Shown here: positions 44,201 through 52,078 of the stretch, one piece after another
Position numbering within the stretch: position 1 is the stretch's first letter
Layout: every line of letters starts with the position of its first letter
DNA from: Ornithinimicrobium sufpigmenti
Lineage (GTDB): Bacteria; Actinomycetota; Actinomycetes; Actinomycetales; Dermatophilaceae
DNA: 64,000 nt
Assembly: GCF_004322775.1 (NCBI RefSeq)
Contig: NZ_CP036403.1
Coordinates: 310,001-374,000, forward strand
Direction: 5' to 3'
Made by a program: the position numbers and the translations under genes
The notes under the pieces: generated by a model
Seen by the model: only the letters and a program-made list of their open reading frames with translations
What the model was told of the DNA's origin: nothing
The model's database searches: none

Positions 44201-44316
44201 AAGATCACTCCCGCACGTTCACCGACTGGCTGACCTGCGTCGCAAGCATGTGACCTGCGATGACAGGTACAGTAGCGCGTGAAAGGTTCGGGCACAAGCG
44301 GACACGAGGTGACACT

Positions 44317-44337
44317 AGTTATGCCCCAGTTATGCCC
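44317..44337 (+). repeat. Two direct 10-bp repeats before the integrase gene
   Basis: AGTTATGCCC occurs at 44317-44326 and 44328-44337, an 11-bp period, between the att core and the integrase start. Such spaced repeats next to attP are typical arm sites for tyrosine integrases or excisionase sites. Otherwise 44201-44361 shows no gene. Confidence 0.45.
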
Positions 44338-44361
44338 ATCTGTCGGCGAGCAGGAGGGGCT

Positions 44362-45489
44362 GTGACACGGGCCAAGCGTGACTTCGGAACGATCCGCCGC
44401 CGGTCGGGCGGGCGGTACCAGGCGTTCTACATGGGCCCGGACCAGGACTTCCACCGGGCTCCTTCCACGTTCCAGACCCGCGCCGACGCCGAGGCGTGGC
44501 TGGCCCACGAACGGCGGCTGATCCAGGACGACACCTGGTCCCCGACCCGTTCGCGGCGGGCCAAGGTCGCCCGTACCGCTGAGGCGTTCGGCCCCTACGC
44601 GACCGCCTGGTTGTCCCAGCGCGACCTCAAGCCGCGCACCCGCGCCCTCTACCAGCGGCTGCTGGAACGCTTCCTCCTCCCCGAGTTCGAGCACGTAGCG
44701 CTGAGGGACATCACCCCGGCCGTGGTGCGGGTATGGCACGCCGGCCTCGACCCCCACCGGCCCACCCAACGCGCCCACGCCTACGCCCTGCTGCGCTCGA
44801 TCCTGGCGACCGCCGTAGCCGACGAGATCCTGGCCGCCAACCCCTGCCGGGTCCGCGGCGCCGGGACCACCACCCGGGCCCGCCGGGTCGAACCGGCCAC
44901 CTTGGACCAGCTCACCGTCCTGGTGAAACACATGCCCGACCGGTACCAGGCCCTAGTCCTGCTGGGTGCCTGGTGCGGTCTGCGGTTCGGGGAGATGGCC
45001 GAGCTGCGCCGCGCCGACCTGGACCTGGCCACAGGGGTGGTGCACGTGCGCCGCGGCGTAGTCCGCATCACCGGACAGGTCTCCGTCGGCACCCCCAAGT
45101 CCGCCGCGGGCCTACGGGACGTGGCTATCCCACCCCACCTGATCCCCACCCTGACTGAGCACTTGGCCACCCACGTCGGACCTGCACCCGAGGCGCTGGT
45201 CTTTCCGTCGGTCACCGACCCCGAGGTTCAGGTCCACCCCAACACCCTCTACCGGCACTGGCACAAGGCGCGAGAGGTGGCCGGCCGGCCAGACTTGCGC
45301 ATCCACGACCTGCGCCACACCGGCGCCGTCCTGGCCGCCCGCACCGGCGCCACCCTCGCCGAACTCATGGCCCGCATCGGCCACTCCACCCCCCAAGCCG
45401 CCCTCCGCTACCAACACGCCGCCCTGGGCCGCGACGCCCACATCGCCGAGCAGCTCTCCCAACTCGCCCAAGCCCAGCAATCCAGCTGA
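44362..45489 (+). CDS. Tyrosine-recombinase integrase
   Basis: The 375-residue protein has an AP2-like N-terminal arm-binding part (GTIRRRSGGRYQAFYMGPDQ), a core-binding SAM-like domain (about 70-155), and the catalytic domain with Arg in GAWCGLRFGEMAEL, HDLRHTGA (His-x-x-Arg), GHSTPQAALRYQHA with the final His/Trp position and nucleophile Tyr in ALRYQH. I start at the GTG at 44362, preceded by AGGAGGGG; the longer frame from 44260 would cover the repeats. It should catalyse integration at the adjacent tRNA. Confidence 0.93.
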   Translation: MTRAKRDFGTIRRRSGGRYQAFYMGPDQDFHRAPSTFQTRADAEAWLAHERRLIQDDTWSPTRSRRAKVARTAEAFGPYATAWLSQRDLKPRTRALYQRLLERFLLPEFEHVALRDITPAVVRVWHAGLDPHRPTQRAHAYALLRSILATAVADEILAANPCRVRGAGTTTRARRVEPATLDQLTVLVKHMPDRYQALVLLGAWCGLRFGEMAELRRADLDLATGVVHVRRGVVRITGQVSVGTPKSAAGLRDVAIPPHLIPTLTEHLATHVGPAPEALVFPSVTDPEVQVHPNTLYRHWHKAREVAGRPDLRIHDLRHTGAVLAARTGATLAELMARIGHSTPQAALRYQHAALGRDAHIAEQLSQLAQAQQSS

Positions 45490-45553
45490 CTCGAGGTGTG
45501 AAGGCGTCCGTTGTCGAGGTGCGTGACAGCGCGGATCCGCCGATGCCCGGATG

Positions 45554-45571
45554 CCTAGGGGCGGCCCTAGG
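45554..45571. other. Short hairpin containing the IS5-type target CTAG
   Basis: CCTAGGG (45554-45560) pairs with CCCTAGG (45565-45571) around GCGG, 65 nt after the integrase stop, a plausible terminator. The CTAG in the right arm is the 4-bp target of the element that begins at 45571, so the insertion went into this hairpin. Confidence 0.5.
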
Positions 45572-45587
45572 AGGTGTTGCGAAACTC
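45571..45587 (+). repeat. Left terminal inverted repeat of the IS5-type element
   Basis: GAGGTGTTGCGAAACTC, directly preceded by CTAG. It matches the reverse complement of 47787-47803 at 15 of 17 positions. Confidence 0.8.
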
Positions 45588-45616
45588 TCCAGAGCTGTAG
45601 CGCGCGTGTGCCACAC

Positions 45617-45651
45617 TTGCAACTTTACCAACCGGTTGGTATAGTAGCTGC
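45617..45651 (+). promoter_or_regulatory. Promoter and TetR operator of the SMR cassette
   Basis: TTGCAA (45617-45622) and TATAGT (45640-45645) are 17 bp apart. The spacer and -10 contain a 16-bp perfect palindrome TACCAACCGGTTGGTA (45626-45641), placed to block polymerase. The ATG of tetR is 6 nt after the -10, so the mRNA is leaderless. The layout indicates autoregulation by the TetR protein. Confidence 0.75.
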
Positions 45652-46188
45652 ATGACCAACTCACGCGACGTGGTGATCGAGCGTTCGCTCGACCTCATCC
45701 GGGCCGGAGGCACCGTCTCGCTCGAATCAGCGGCACGGGCCAGCGGCTTGACCAAACCGGGAGTGATCTACCACTTCCCAACGAAGCACGCCCTAATGTG
45801 CGGACTCGTCGATGCCGTAGCTGACGACTGGCTCCACGGCATGGCGGCGCGGCTGCCCGCAGCACCCGAGTCCGTATCAGTCAGCGAACGGGTCGCCGCG
45901 TACTTGGATGAGTGCCTCGACCGGGAAGCCGACCCCTCGGACATCGTGATGCTCAGCGATCCGCGACTTCGCGACGAGCTCACGGCTCGATGGGCGGAAC
46001 GTCTTCACGCATGGTTCAGCGGACTCGAGGCCTTGCCGGCAGCACAGCGCGGGCACCTGAGCGCAGTCCGGCTCATGGCCGACGGCATCTGGTTCGCCAC
46101 GGCCACCGGCATCAACCCGCCCACACTCGAAGAGCGCCCGGCCATTCGCGCCGCGGCGCAAGAGCTCCTCGCGAAAGTCGAAGCATGA
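45652..46188 (+). CDS. TetR-family repressor of the SMR genes
   Basis: The 178-residue protein has the TetR HTH at the N-terminus (VSLESAARASGLTKPGVIYHFPTKHALM, parts ESAARASGLTKPGVIYHFP) and a helical ligand-binding domain with little similarity to well-known members. It overlaps the first SMR gene by 4 nt (ATGA) and has a perfect operator palindrome in its own promoter. It should sense a toxic cation and release the operon. Base composition is more AT-rich than in the core genes by eye, in keeping with transfer. Confidence 0.92.
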   Translation: MTNSRDVVIERSLDLIRAGGTVSLESAARASGLTKPGVIYHFPTKHALMCGLVDAVADDWLHGMAARLPAAPESVSVSERVAAYLDECLDREADPSDIVMLSDPRLRDELTARWAERLHAWFSGLEALPAAQRGHLSAVRLMADGIWFATATGINPPTLEERPAIRAAAQELLAKVEA

Positions 46189-46529
46189 AGAAGTGGTTGT
46201 TCCTCGTCGGCGCCATCCTCAGCGAATCGGCCGGCTCATTGTCGCTGAAGGCCGCACTCGGCCACCCCGCCTGGTACCTGCTCGTCATCGCCGGATTCCT
46301 TGCAGCATTCGTGTTCCTCGCCCTCGTGCTTCGCGAAGGGATGGCGCTGGGCGTCGCATACGGGATCTGGGGAGCATCAGGCGTCGCCTTGACCGCCGTG
46401 CTGTCAGCACTCATCTTCGGAGAAGCGCTCACACCCCTCATGCTCGTCGGGATCGTGCTCATCATCCTGGGCGTACTCACCATCGAACTCGGCGCTCAAC
46501 GAGCCGCCACGAAACGAGAGGCGAATTGA
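46185..46529 (+). CDS. Small multidrug resistance protein, first of a pair
   Basis: A 114-residue, four-helix SMR protein. The essential membrane Glu14 is present in GAILSESAGSLSLKAA, and GVAYGIWGASGVALTAVLSA matches the helix 3 signature. SMR proteins export quaternary ammonium and other lipophilic cations, or guanidinium, for protons. Two adjacent unequal SMR genes usually mean a heterodimer (as in EbrAB and YkkCD). It ends with a charged tail RAATKREAN and its stop overlaps the ATG of the second subunit by 1 nt. Confidence 0.93.
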   Translation: MKKWLFLVGAILSESAGSLSLKAALGHPAWYLLVIAGFLAAFVFLALVLREGMALGVAYGIWGASGVALTAVLSALIFGEALTPLMLVGIVLIILGVLTIELGAQRAATKREAN

Positions 46530-46849
46530 TGGCCTGGCTCTTCCTCATCGGCGCGATCGCATTCGAGGTCGCCGCAACGCTCGCTCTACGCATGGCCACC
46601 CACGGTAAGAAGGTGTGGTTCATCGCCGTCGCCGTCGGCTACCTCGCCGCCTTCGGGTTCTTGTCCCTGACCCTGGATGCCGGCATCGGCCTCGGTGTCG
46701 CCTACGGCATCTGGGCGGCCTCGGGCGTTGCACTGACCGCACTACTGAGCAAACTGCTCTTCAAAGAACCGTTCACCTGGATCATGGGCGCCGGCGTGGC
46801 ACTCGTCGTCGGTGGCGTGCTTCTCGTCGAGCTGGGAGTCACGCACTGA
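46529..46849 (+). CDS. Small multidrug resistance protein, second of a pair
   Basis: A 106-residue SMR protein with Glu13 in GAIAFEVAATLALRMA and GLGVAYGIWAASGVALTALLSK in helix 3 (parts VAYGIWAASGVALTALLS). It lacks the charged tail of its partner, a common difference in paired SMRs. Its last 11 nt overlap the end of the convergent transposase gene, so the cassette and the transposase are tightly packed. Confidence 0.93.
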   Translation: MAWLFLIGAIAFEVAATLALRMATHGKKVWFIAVAVGYLAAFGFLSLTLDAGIGLGVAYGIWAASGVALTALLSKLLFKEPFTWIMGAGVALVVGGVLLVELGVTH

Positions 46850-47756
46850 CTACTGAAAGCAACCGTTCGCTCGGAGGAGGCGGCAGAGTCCGGACCCAGT
46901 GGAGAGCGGCAGCGAGGCAGAGCGCGGAGTGGTAGTTGCGGGCGGTCTTGTCGGAGCGCATCGCGATCCCTCGCCACTGCTTGAGCTTGTTGAAGGAGCG
47001 CTCTACGACGTTGCGGCCGCGGTAGCGTTGCCGCTGCTCAGGGCCGAACTCGATCGGCCGACCGGGTCGCTTGCGACGGTGAGCGATCTGGTCGGCCCGC
47101 TCGGGGATCGTCGCGGCGATACCGCGTTCACGTAGCCACGCCCGGTTCGCCCTGGACGGGTAGCCCTTGTCGGCGATGACCCGGTCCGGGCGGGTCCGTG
47201 GCCTGCCGAAGGCGCCGGGGACGCGGATCTGATCGAGCGTCTCGGCCAGCATCGACGTGTCGGCAACTTGACCGCCGGTGATGACGAACGCGAGCGGTCA
47301 TCCCTTGCCGTCGCAGACCAGATGCGTCTTGCTCGTGAGCCCGCCGCGGGAACGGCCGATCGCATGGTCAGGAGGCTCGGGCCGAATTTCTTGTAGTTCG
47401 CTCTCGCCCCCTGTGGTGCGCGGAAGGGTCGCGCCATGCTGATGGACGCGCACGATCGTGGAGTCGATCGAGGCCACCCAGTCCAAGTCCTCGTTCGCCA
47501 GCGCGAGTGACTGGACGCGCTCGAGCACGCCCGCCCAGACGCCGGCCTTGGACCAACGGTCGAAGTTCTTGTAGACGGTGTTCCAGTTCCCGAACCGCTC
47601 CGGCGTATCCCGCCACGGCGCACCGGTCCGATAGTGCCAAGCGGTCGCTTCCACGACCAGGCGGCGATCCACCGGAGGACGCCCGGTCTCCGCCGCGGCC
47701 GGGAACACTGGACCGATCACGGCCCACACCTCATCCGAGATCACATCGCGAGACAC
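46839..47756 (-). pseudogene. IS5-family DDE transposase interrupted by an in-frame TGA
   Basis: One reading frame encodes an IS5-type transposase of about 305 codons. The N-terminal part (ISDEVWAVIGPVFPA, GAPWRDTPERFGNWNTVYKNFDRW in parts) is the DUF4096-like domain; the first Asp is in DWVASIDSTIVRVHQHGA. The frame is cut by a single TGA at 47298-47300, after HLVCDGKG and before PLAFVITGGQ; a CGA to TGA change would explain it. The second Asp (RVIADKGYPS) and the Glu (NVVERSFNKLKQWRG) lie beyond it. I start at the GTG at 47756 (VSRDVISDEVW). Unless the stop is read through, the element is no longer self-mobile. Confidence 0.82.
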
Positions 47757-47786
47757 GTCATCAAGGATCGCCGACAAGCACCCTAC

Positions 47787-47803
47787 GAGTTTGGCAACAC
47801 GTC
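47787..47803 (-). repeat. Right terminal inverted repeat of the IS5-type element
   Basis: On the minus strand this reads GACGTGTTGCCAAACTC, 31 nt upstream of the transposase start, and is followed on the plus strand by the CTAG duplication at 47804-47807. Confidence 0.8.
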
Positions 47804-47951
47804 CTAGTCGCGGTCGAACACGCTGATACAGGATGGCGAAGGAGGCGATCGGGACCGGCTGCCGACCCAATGAATGTTCGCGGTGGGCTCGGCCCCTTAG
47901 GATGGGCGCGTGCTCGTGCTCGTGCTCGAAACATTCTTGGGTCGTGCGTTA

Positions 47952-49248: not shown

Positions 49249-51813
49249 CTATTTTCTGTACCCCTTTACCCGCTTGTACCACGCCTCCGCACGGTCGAGT
49301 TCCGCTGAAATTTCGTCTAGCGTGGGAGGCACGTAGTTCAGGGAGACATCTTGGTCATGGCGGGTCCAACCCGAGCACCGACCGTAGGACTCCTGAAGTT
49401 CACGGTTGTCGGCCTCCGTGATCTGCTCAGCAATTTTCACCATGGTGACGCTGACGTGCAGAGTGGATCTGTCGAATAGGAGGTCTGCTACCTCCTGACT
49501 GATGATGCGCTCCCAAGTCTGTGAGAGGCGCCCCGCCCACTTGCTCACCGCGTCCTCATACTCGTCCTGGGTCCACTCGCCTGCATTGACTTTCTTGGTC
49601 ATGCGAGCAAGCTCAGCACGCAGGTCGTGGATGCGCGCAGGTGTGTCTTTGATGGTCCACGGGTGCTTCTGCTGAACAATCCCCGGCTGTCCGTCCGCCA
49701 GCCGGCGTTCGATGGTCCGTTCGGTGACCTCGACCCCATTGGCGCGAGCGCGCCTTTTCAGGCTCGCCGCGAATGCCACGTCATGGGTGAACACGATGAC
49801 CTGGCGGTCCTTCGCAAACCGCGCCAGCCTCTGGGCCACCACATCGCGGCGCAGATGGTCCAGGCTCGTGACGGGATCGTCCAGCACGATGGCCGACTTG
49901 GATGCGTCAAGGTGCGCTTCCACGAAGTAGCCGGAGAGCCCGAGCGCTGTCTGCTCCCCTTCCGAAAGCACACGCGGGAGCTCCGCCTGGATGGCCGCTC
50001 CCACGAATGCGGGCTTGTGCAGGATCGATCCCCGCCTGACGCCCTGACCAAGCAGGGTCACCGTGTCGACGTGAAGGTCCTGAGACTCACGAGAGAAGCG
50101 GTCCTGGACGACGACCGTAACGTGCGAGGCTGTCAGGTCGCCCAACGCGCGGGAGATGCCCCGTGTGTCTGTCTGACGGCGTGCTTCGTGAAGCAGGCTT
50201 TCTTCTCGGCGCCGGTCACGCTCGGCACGGGCATTCTCCGCTGCCTCAGCGAGTCGCACCTTGGCGCGAAGTTCCTTCTGCACTGTTGCGAGTTCAGAAA
50301 CCCTGTCGTTGAATGCGGTCGGGTCGATCAACCTGGCATCGACCGCGTAAGCCTTTCCCGCGGTGTCTAGCCGAGAAGACAGATCACGGCTGGGAACCGC
50401 TGGTACTTCAGTTGACGCGAGGAGCGCCTCTCGCCTCGCCTTCCAGCCCTCCATCGCCGCGAGTGCCTCGGAGTGTGACTGGTCGGCCTCATGCTGGATG
50501 TCGCGCAGGGCGATGGTGACGTTCGTCTGGTCGATCTGGACCGCCTCCACGCTGCTGATCCGTGCGGCGAGTCTGGCGGCAGCGGCGCGGGCGTGGTCCT
50601 CAGTAGTGTCGACCATCATCTGGTGAAAACGCTCGAGCCTCGCCCTGGCGTCGGCGCTCAGGGGCTGGTGGCAGAGCACGCAGTGGCCTCCGTCCCCCGT
50701 ATGAGGAAAGCCCTTCTGCGGATAGGCGACCTCCTCGGAGTATTGGCGCGCAGCCGCCCAGAGCGCCCGCCAGGCGGTGCTGCCCACACCTTCCAAGGGT
50801 TCATCCGTAAACCGCGACGAGGCAGCCTCGTCGGCCAGTGCCCGAGTCTGCTGGGCTGTTTCCCGATCGGCGGCGAGCTCTTGCTCGAACTGGGCCCCAA
50901 GGGTGTTCTCTAGACGGGTGAGATGAGCCGAAATGATGGTGAACGCCCCTGCGATCTGATCGAGCCGGGCTGCTTCCTTCTCGGGGCTGGTCGCTCGCAG
51001 CCGACTCTCCTCCTCCCGCGCGACCTCGATCCGTTCCTCAGCGTCGTCTGGCGCCTTGCACATCTGATCCAGCGTCGTGTCGTCCGTCTCTCCGCTAAGG
51101 GTGGACAGCAACCTCCCCGCCGCCGTGTCGGGTTCGAGGGCGGGAAGCCCGACCGTCCGCTGCGCGTTCGCTGCGAGGCGGCCGTCGAGCACCTGCCGGA
51201 CGCCGTCACATACGTCGATCAGTCCGTCCAGTAGACGCAAGGCCGATGGCCGGTAGACCGCCTCCCCCTCCTTGGTCACGTACAAGTCGCCGCATCGCTC
51301 GTCATAGAAACTGACCTGCTGGAGCTCAGATGGTGCGGCGTCGGAGAGAAGGACGGTGCGAGCCTGCCCATCCCACTCATATTCCAAGCAGGCAGCCTGG
51401 ACGCCGCCCCCAGTAGAGAAAATGTCCGGAAGCACTCGCTCCTGATGCCGGGTGTGCACGAGGCTCTTCACGAGGCGCGCGTAGCCAGACTTGCCCGAGC
51501 CGTTGTTGCCGTAGACGACGGTGATTCCGGTGGGGCTGAACGTAAGTGTCTCTCCTGTAGCGAGGCGGTTGACGTTGCTGACGTCACGGATAGCTGTCAG
51601 AGTCACTGCCGGGGAAGCGACTTCGGCAGGCTGTTGAACACCAGCGAGCCAACCGCCATCGGGCTCGGACGGTTCTGGAAGCAGAAGAGCACCAGCAATC
51701 GCCTCGTAGTCCGCATCGTTCGGTGGGGTACCTGAAGCAAGTTGGACGATGGCCCTTTGTTGCCACCAGGGGCGGGTCGCCGCCCAGGCGATGATGTCCG
51801 CGTAAGCCGTCAT
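49249..51813 (-). CDS. ABC/SMC-type ATPase with zinc hook (RloC-like, candidate defence protein)
   Basis: The 854-residue protein is an SMC/Rad50-style ATPase. Walker A is YGNNGSGKSGYARL (about 102-109). A long, charged helical middle carries a CVLC hook (about 376-379). The ABC signature is VLSEGEQTALGLSGYF (about 617), Walker B is SAIVLDDPVTSLDH (about 644), and the H-loop is VIVFTHDVAF (about 671). About 180 residues follow, with WERIISQEV and CSGWTRHDQD blocks that could be an effector. The hook and size resemble RloC anticodon nucleases and other defence-island ATPases. The start at 51813 has GGGAGA upstream. The adjoining 51814-52078 holds no gene I can support. Confidence 0.85.
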   Translation of the reverse strand: MTAYADIIAWAATRPWWQQRAIVQLASGTPPNDADYEAIAGALLLPEPSEPDGGWLAGVQQPAEVASPAVTLTAIRDVSNVNRLATGETLTFSPTGITVVYGNNGSGKSGYARLVKSLVHTRHQERVLPDIFSTGGGVQAACLEYEWDGQARTVLLSDAAPSELQQVSFYDERCGDLYVTKEGEAVYRPSALRLLDGLIDVCDGVRQVLDGRLAANAQRTVGLPALEPDTAAGRLLSTLSGETDDTTLDQMCKAPDDAEERIEVAREEESRLRATSPEKEAARLDQIAGAFTIISAHLTRLENTLGAQFEQELAADRETAQQTRALADEAASSRFTDEPLEGVGSTAWRALWAAARQYSEEVAYPQKGFPHTGDGGHCVLCHQPLSADARARLERFHQMMVDTTEDHARAAAARLAARISSVEAVQIDQTNVTIALRDIQHEADQSHSEALAAMEGWKARREALLASTEVPAVPSRDLSSRLDTAGKAYAVDARLIDPTAFNDRVSELATVQKELRAKVRLAEAAENARAERDRRREESLLHEARRQTDTRGISRALGDLTASHVTVVVQDRFSRESQDLHVDTVTLLGQGVRRGSILHKPAFVGAAIQAELPRVLSEGEQTALGLSGYFVEAHLDASKSAIVLDDPVTSLDHLRRDVVAQRLARFAKDRQVIVFTHDVAFAASLKRRARANGVEVTERTIERRLADGQPGIVQQKHPWTIKDTPARIHDLRAELARMTKKVNAGEWTQDEYEDAVSKWAGRLSQTWERIISQEVADLLFDRSTLHVSVTMVKIAEQITEADNRELQESYGRCSGWTRHDQDVSLNYVPPTLDEISAELDRAEAWYKRVKGYRK

Positions 51814-52078
51814 GCCTTGTCTCCCCTTGCGTGAACGCCCGACCATCCAACGCCAGGCCGGCGCGAGGCTGGTCCCTCTTAAGCGAAGCATGCCAGGAGG
51901 CGCTGACGCGCCCGGGCCCCCTTGTCATGCGGCGGGTCTGCGTACTGAACTGCGGCGTTTGGTTACGTACCGAGGCGCTGCGGAGGCACAGCGCCGTGTT
52001 GCGCCGTGCCGGCAGGCGGGTCGACGGGTGAGGGACGTTCTCGGTGCTCCAGCCCGGCCGTCCCGCGGCTTGGGATCT

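What the first reader, a model, noticed from the sequence alone, without database searches (positions are those of the whole stretch)
45567..47807. IS5-family element carrying a TetR-regulated paired SMR efflux cassette
The 17-bp inverted repeats (15/17) at 45571-45587 and 47787-47803 are each directly flanked by CTAG, the target duplication expected for the IS5 group. They enclose tetR with a perfect operator, two SMR genes, and a convergent transposase whose end overlaps the second SMR gene by 11 nt. This looks like a transporter IS in which a complete, self-regulated efflux operon moves as one small unit. IS5 elements normally carry only the transposase.
Basis: partly seen in the sequence, partly recalled or inferred. 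Interest (0 to 1): 0.85.

Follow-up and report, generated by a model that had tools for sequence, protein, structure and literature searches.

The report
Insertion sequence carrying an efflux operon
A small jumping element in an actinobacterium carries, besides its own (here interrupted) jumping gene, a complete drug-pump-type operon with its own regulator, and relatives of the element carry many other genes in the same slot, which suggests that this kind of element repeatedly picks up and spreads passenger genes.

Summary
Window 45570-47804 is one IS5-family (IS427-like) element: 16/18-bp inverted ends in CTAG contexts, an interrupted transposase, and tetR-smr1-smr2 behind its own promoter and operator-like palindrome. 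I found no second copy with this cargo and no empty site for it; relatives give the evidence that such units move. Bare relatives are 873-947 bp. I count 15 distinct elements (this one included) with a passenger between their ends, in 14 of them between the transposase 3' end and the distal repeat, with unrelated cargo (MerR-family regulator plus MerA, EXLDI, Imm8, SUKH, GNAT, AHSA1, DUF1254 and others). One is 99.85% identical in two families at unrelated sites; one is present twice on a plasmid; the MerA element interrupts a site that aligns across the junction in 35 of 37 other genomes of its genus. Transporter IS are a known kind; recurrent capture in this clade, with resistance-type operons, is the new part. 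New variant of a known kind.

The parts
45570..47804 (.). whole element if the target duplication is TA (45571-47803 if it is CTAG)
45570..45587 (+). distal (passenger-side) terminal inverted repeat, 18 bp
   Evidence: 16/18 match to the other end
47787..47804 (-). transposase-side terminal inverted repeat, 18 bp
   Evidence: fits the relatives' end motif without mismatch
45568..45569 (.). TA of the left CTAG (45567-45570), probable target duplication
   Evidence: asymmetric TTAG/CTAG ends in relatives
47805..47806 (.). TA of the right CTAG (47804-47807), probable target duplication
45617..45645 (+). promoter-like TTGCAA-17-TATAGT of the passenger operon
   Evidence: 1 found, 0.3 expected in shuffles
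45626..45641 (+). perfect palindrome TACCAACCGGTTGGTA, probable TetR operator
   Evidence: similar palindromes before 8 of 10 tetR homologues outside the IS (3 of the 8 identical upstream)
45652..46188 (+). tetR (178 aa)
   Evidence: PF17937 1.5e-11; TetR_N 0.0064, below its cut-off
46185..46529 (+). smr1 (114 aa), Glu14 present
   Evidence: PF00893 8.9e-16; sequence
46529..46849 (+). smr2 (106 aa), Glu13 present
   Evidence: PF00893 7.5e-17; best solved relatives EmrE, 6e-07
45588..46893 (.). passenger segment; homology to the bare IS ends at about 46894
   Evidence: 88% match to the 925-bp L019 element up to its position 912
47298..47756 (-). transposase, N-terminal piece (start chosen by homology), ends at in-frame TGA 47298-47300
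   Evidence: PF13340 6.2e-26; NCBIfam transpos_IS5_3 140 bits, cut-off 110
46839..47297 (-). transposase, C-terminal piece in the same frame, ends 11 nt inside smr2
   Evidence: PF13586 4.3e-13, PF01609 5.9e-12 for 46842-47252

Best explanation
The feature is a transporter insertion sequence of the IS5 family, IS427-like: one transposase gene between short inverted ends, which in this sub-clade has repeatedly taken up a passenger between the transposase 3' end and its distal end. The cargo here is a self-contained operon: TetR binds a palindrome inside its own promoter and so represses tetR-smr1-smr2; a cationic inducer releases it and the two SMR proteins form a (probably heterodimeric) exporter of a small cation. 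Transposase cuts at both outer ends, so transposase and operon moved into a CTAG site together. Capture most likely happened when a second IS end lay beyond the operon and the native distal end decayed, so that the outer end became the only one left. Shown: structure, homologies, passenger-bearing relatives that sit whole at different sites. Inferred: operator and exporter function, capture route. This copy is probably no longer self-mobile.
For: Ends and CTAG. Transposase families. Group: the published IS427-group ISPssp5 has ends GGGTGTGTC/GGGCGTGTC, duplication TA and two overlapping ORFs (PMC6514802, passages); many relatives here have GGGCGTGTTGC or GGCCGTGTTGC ends and a second ORF in the +1 frame. 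Of 49 distinct transposase cores, 25 are 873-947 bp end to end and 14 are 1300-2910 bp with a passenger beyond the transposase, this one included (window, L087, L002's second copy); 2 (L008, L010) have the passenger on the other side; 8 lack a called pair of ends. Unit movement: L089 vs L088 99.85% over 1309 nt, no flank similarity; L003 vs L113 100% over 1555 nt on one plasmid; L008 vs L010 90.4% from end to end in two genera; the MerA element sits in a site that aligns across the junction in 35 of 37 other genomes of its genus (two of them looked at). Capture: the native distal end is absent in 9 of 12 passenger elements (best 7-8 mismatches of 15) and present in worn form in L029, L016 and L020 (3, 4, 4 mismatches); L029's outer end is 92% identical to 106 nt of its own other end and L020's ends in 22 nt of a native distal end. 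The operon occurs without this IS in plasmids and genomes, with similar palindromes.
Against: This copy: transposase interrupted, single copy in a 4.17-Mb one-contig genome, no empty site, no second example with this cargo. Its distal repeat has 3 mismatches, its other repeat 2, to the end GGCGTGTTGCTAAA of many relatives. The capture route rests on 4 of 15 elements (L008/L010, L016, L020, L029); in the window nothing of it is preserved (native end 7 of 15 mismatches). TetR_N is below its Pfam cut-off. No SMR model reached its NCBIfam cut-off, so the substrate is open. Many of the 49 cores are near-copies of one another, so the shares are not independent counts.
Confidence: 0.85

Rival explanations
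1. A chance pairing: a bare IS inserted next to a tetR-smr-smr operon, and the left repeat is a coincidence.
For: Operon and IS occur separately in many genomes; this copy has no twin.
Against: 0 of 100 shuffles give two such ends; directly behind the transposase, where bare relatives have their distal repeat, the window has none (best 7 of 15 mismatches); the same layout recurs with other cargo in relatives.
Confidence: 0.04
2. A residual composite transposon: the left repeat is the last remnant of a second IS copy, and the pair is not a lasting unit.
For: L008/L010 (117-122 nt of inverted IS end at both sides), L029 (106 nt) and L020 (22 nt of native distal end) show second-copy remnants at the outer end.
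Against: In the window no IS sequence was found beyond the repeat, and L008/L010 are shared end to end between genera, so even these behave as units. This rival concerns origin more than present structure.
Confidence: 0.1
3. A defective, fixed relic with no mobility in its present form (host-serving efflux operon with unused IS ends). It is the likely present-day state under the main explanation, so the two odds are not exclusive.
For: In-frame stop in the transposase, loss of the two-frame layout seen in most relatives, no other copy in the genome.
Against: Both ends are still there; a related transposase from elsewhere could act on them.
Confidence: 0.6

Closest known systems
IS427 group of the IS5 family (e.g. 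ISPssp5, PMC6514802, passages only)
   Same: Similar terminal repeats, TA duplication (probable here), 837 bp against 873-947 bp for bare relatives, two overlapping frames in most relatives.
   Different: 2.2 kb with a passenger operon; frame layout lost in this copy. The paper says that its elements carry no passenger genes.
Transporter IS (tIS) as defined in PMC9330008 and PMC3129680 (passages)
   Same: IS with passenger genes between its ends.
   Different: The passages I saw name no IS5-family example; here the cargo slot is nearly fixed and the cargo changes from element to element.
Paired SMR exporters (EbrAB, MdtIJ; names from NCBIfam hits, their pairing recalled)
   Same: Two adjacent, overlapping SMR genes with the conserved Glu.
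   Different: Below all NCBIfam cut-offs; own TetR; substrate unknown.
Composite transposons
   Same: L008/L010, L029 and L020 look as if two IS ends enclosed a gene.
   Different: One transposase, one short outer end, no second full IS.

Membership tests
IS5 family, IS427 group | IS5-family DDE transposase | tested here: met
   transpos_IS5_3 140 bits (cut-off 110) for the N-terminal piece; C-terminal piece 86 bits, below the cut-off alone; PF13340, PF13586, PF01609
IS5 family, IS427 group | GGGYGTGT-type inverted ends (as in ISPssp5) | tested here: met
   loosely: GGAGGTGT and GGACGTGT, 2 and 1 mismatches to GGGCGTGT; many relatives exact; published ends
IS5 family, IS427 group | TA duplication | tested here: inconclusive
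   CTAG on both sides fits TA or CTAG; 4 of 37 called pairs, plus L113, read TTAG on one side and CTAG on the other, which a 4-bp copy does not explain; 4 of 37 are other, and L117 reads TCAG at both ends, which fits neither
IS5 family, IS427 group | two overlapping frames (programmed frameshift) | tested here: not met
   most of the 49 cores have it; this copy has one frame with an internal stop, which I read as decay, not as another family
Transporter IS | passenger gene between the IS ends | tested here: met
Transporter IS | passenger moves with the IS | tested here: inconclusive
   not shown for this copy; sequence evidence for relatives
Small multidrug resistance family | PF00893 domain and membrane-embedded Glu | tested here: met
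   Glu14 and Glu13 in the sequences (role of this Glu recalled)
Small multidrug resistance family | exports toxic cations | not testable with these tools
   needs transport assays
Composite transposon | two IS copies as flanks | tested here: not met
   one transposase; no IS sequence found beyond the left repeat

The most novel reading that the evidence does not exclude
A clade of IS427-like elements of Actinomycetes is a small gene-capture platform: when the native distal end decays, the element uses a new end further out, so that a neighbouring gene becomes a fixed passenger in the same slot. The 15 distinct passenger elements seen hold unrelated cargo, including two regulated resistance-type operons (tetR-smr-smr, MerR-family regulator plus merA) and single immunity or detoxification-type genes.
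Probability: 0.55. Interest if true: 0.7.

Novelty: new variant of a known kind. Interest (0 to 1): 0.55.

Why it matters
Small IS are usually thought to move host genes as pairs (composite transposons) or by one-ended events (recalled). A clade of 0.9-kb IS whose members hold different genes or operons behind the transposase would show how the smallest elements become unit transposons, and gives intermediates (worn inner end, outer end from a second copy) in which the step can be studied. In the plasmid gene table used here some of these copies are listed only as 'IS5 family transposase' or have no listed gene under the match (that table is incomplete), so the cargo is easily overlooked. In eight searches of the open-access library the listings and the passages that I read show no IS5-family passenger clade; subscription papers and ISfinder were not searched.

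Tried and rejected
Composite transposon in the window: rejected, no IS sequence found beyond the left repeat. Chance repeats: rejected. A 4-bp CTAG duplication: not excluded, but less likely than TA. Empty site for this copy: the left flank's integrase has relatives in many genomes (128 of 186 match somewhere in the flank), the right flank gives nothing of use; L104 and L105 share only 59 and 38 nt with the left flank. Viral contigs: no relative of the transposase piece or of smr2 by the peptide-pattern scan; phage records: no match. The MerA-element site could not tell TA from CTAG. L011 (4517 bp between ends) was not counted as a passenger element because other ORFs, transposase-like among them, lie inside. 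L015, L002's first copy, L017, L023, L033, L077 and L086 had no complete pair of ends. Copies whose first-piece match began after residue 5, was shorter than 60 residues or was under 55% identical (L034, L035, L048, L062, L065, L066 and others) were dropped before the count of 49. 394 class genomes, partly the same as before, gave one new relative, G569, with no distal end in reach. The host species was not identified; its order holds a genome (G250) whose copy L076 equals that of Microbacterium suaedae (L030) in the compared core.

Full report
Observation. The two CTAG sites, the inverted repeats, the three passenger genes and the overlapping convergent transposase are at the stated coordinates. 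The end motif occurs only at these two places in 64 kb, and none of 100 shuffles gave two. The genome (4.17 Mb, one contig) holds one copy of the element, and a search with the IS part alone also found only this copy.

Passenger. tetR, smr1 and smr2 overlap by 4 and 1 nt and read as one operon. A promoter-like TTGCAA-17-TATAGT, whose second hexamer ends six bases before the tetR start, contains the perfect palindrome TACCAACCGGTTGGTA, which overlaps that hexamer by 2 nt; TetR bound there would block its own operon. Of the ten tetR homologues outside the IS that I looked at, L055 has nearly the same palindrome (CCAACCGGTTGG), L005 the same half-sites four bases apart, L044-L046 (identical upstream sequences) CCTACCGGTAGG, L047, L050 and L051 related palindromes, L052 a degenerate one and L054 none that I recognise. 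tetR-smr-smr occurs without this IS: TetR and two SMR genes are annotated together on plasmids of Curtobacterium, Nocardioides, Streptomyces and others, and the same order was found in several family members. In the Miniimonas plasmid tetR is divergent. Both SMR proteins have PF00893 and the expected Glu but reach no NCBIfam cut-off; the substrate is unknown.

Transposase. The N-terminal piece (47756-47298) and the C-terminal piece (47297-46839) lie in one frame, separated by a TGA. In most of the 49 cores compared, the second part lies in the +1 frame and the first frame ends at about nt 375-390, which fits the two overlapping ORFs reported for the IS427 group (ISPssp5). This copy has lost that layout and carries the stop, so I take its transposase as broken. 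I searched the pieces apart.

Relatives. Transposase relatives came from the collection of 84,980 species genomes (30 loci), 186 family genomes, 396 order genomes (11 with a match, the window's included), 394 class genomes (3, the window's included) and plasmids (55 records; I fetched the surroundings of eight transposase hits). Among 49 distinct cores with at least 55% identity, some of them near-copies of each other, 25 are 873-947 bp between the ends and 11 are 1300-2425 bp. The window (2233), the G371 element (2910) and the second copy in L002 (1647), whose far ends were not reached or not recognised, raise the latter to 14. L008 and L010 carry the passenger on the other side (1826 and 1829 bp). 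Eight have no complete pair of ends. Among the 29 cores with at least 70% identity, 11 are bare, 12 extended on the 3' side of the transposase, 2 are L008 and L010, and 4 lack a pair of ends. Adding L117 (1307 bp) and merging duplicates, 15 distinct passenger elements were seen. L114, L115 and L116 are bare.

Cargo. In L087 a MerR-family regulator (no specific NCBIfam model reaches its cut-off) and MerA (531 bits, cut-off 454); EXLDI protein (L003); Imm8 (L012), SUKH/SMI1 (L016), AHSA1 (L038), GNAT (L040), an AAA-like protein below cut-off (L029) and a DUF1330-like protein below cut-off (L039); DUF1254/DUF1214 (L009); DUF6226 (L002, annotation); a membrane-type protein (L008/L010, judged by eye); and small proteins without a Pfam match or not searched (L004, L020, L117). 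Passenger DNA of 12 elements shows no similarity between elements at E 1e-3. On a tree of the cores passenger elements stand among bare ones; no support values were printed, so I use it only as a picture.

Movement as a unit. The 1301-bp element of G059 and G309, two families, is 99.85% identical over 1309 nt and the similarity stops at the ends. The EXLDI element is present twice on one Leifsonia plasmid, 100% over 1555 nt. L008 and L010, from Diaminobutyricibacter and Humibacter, share 90.4% from end to end and nothing beyond in 600-nt flanks. The joined flanks of the MerA element match as one alignment across the junction (65-78% identity) in 35 of the 37 other genomes of its genus searched; G309 matches one side only and G412 neither. 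I looked at two of the 35. The same search gave no empty site for the G309 element.

Duplication. Of 37 called pairs, 29 read CTAG/CTAG, 4 TTAG on one side and CTAG on the other, and 4 otherwise (L008 and L010 counted by their inner pair). L113 is a fifth TTAG/CTAG; L117 reads TCAG at both ends. A 4-bp direct repeat would give TTAG with CTAA in this reading, which was not seen. So the duplication is probably TA, and the outer bases are target preference. The published TA of an IS427-group element agrees.

How the cargo got in. In 11 of 12 elements compared, homology to bare elements runs to the end of the transposase gene (L020 only to position 874 of 925), and it stops at or before the inner edge of the native distal repeat except in L029. 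At that place the native repeat is absent in 9 of 12 (best 7-8 mismatches of 15) and worn in L029 (3), L016 (4) and L020 (4). L029's outer end is 92% identical to 106 nt of its own other end, in inverted orientation; L020 ends in 22 nt identical to a bare element's native distal end; L008/L010 have IS-end sequence of 117-122 nt at both sides. I infer capture through a second IS end with decay of the inner end. For the window the route itself is not preserved.

Limits. No second example of this cargo with these ends, no empty site for this copy, no experiment. Host species not named. Literature: only the open-access library was searched; four papers were seen by passages, the others only as listings.

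Noticed in passing
window 49249-51891, - strand: 880-aa AAA ATPase that matches the candidate defence family PDC-S06 of PADLOC-DB (5e-153) and AAA_13, about 1.4 kb to the right of the element.
   Followed up: partly
window 44260-45489, + strand: Tyrosine recombinase gene ending 80 nt left of the element, with homologues in the genus (up to 91% over 879 nt). The region may be an integrated element.
   Followed up: partly
window 45511-45567: 38-59 nt that recur at 81-89% in two congeners (L104, L105) where the neighbouring sequence differs, as the end of another mobile element might; the left CTAG lies in a hairpin-like CCTAGGG-GCGG-CCCTAGG.
   Followed up: partly
L087 1956-4865: 2910-bp IS5-type element with a MerR-family regulator and mercuric reductase between its ends: a very small mercury-resistance unit.
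   Followed up: yes
L016 4948-6443: The SUKH-gene element seems to have inserted at the TAG stop codon of a gene (my reading of the joined flanks).
   Followed up: no
L002 3413-5064: Two IS5-type copies lie back to back on a Microbacterium plasmid; the second (1647 bp) carries a DUF6226 gene between its ends, the first has no recognised far end.
   Followed up: partly
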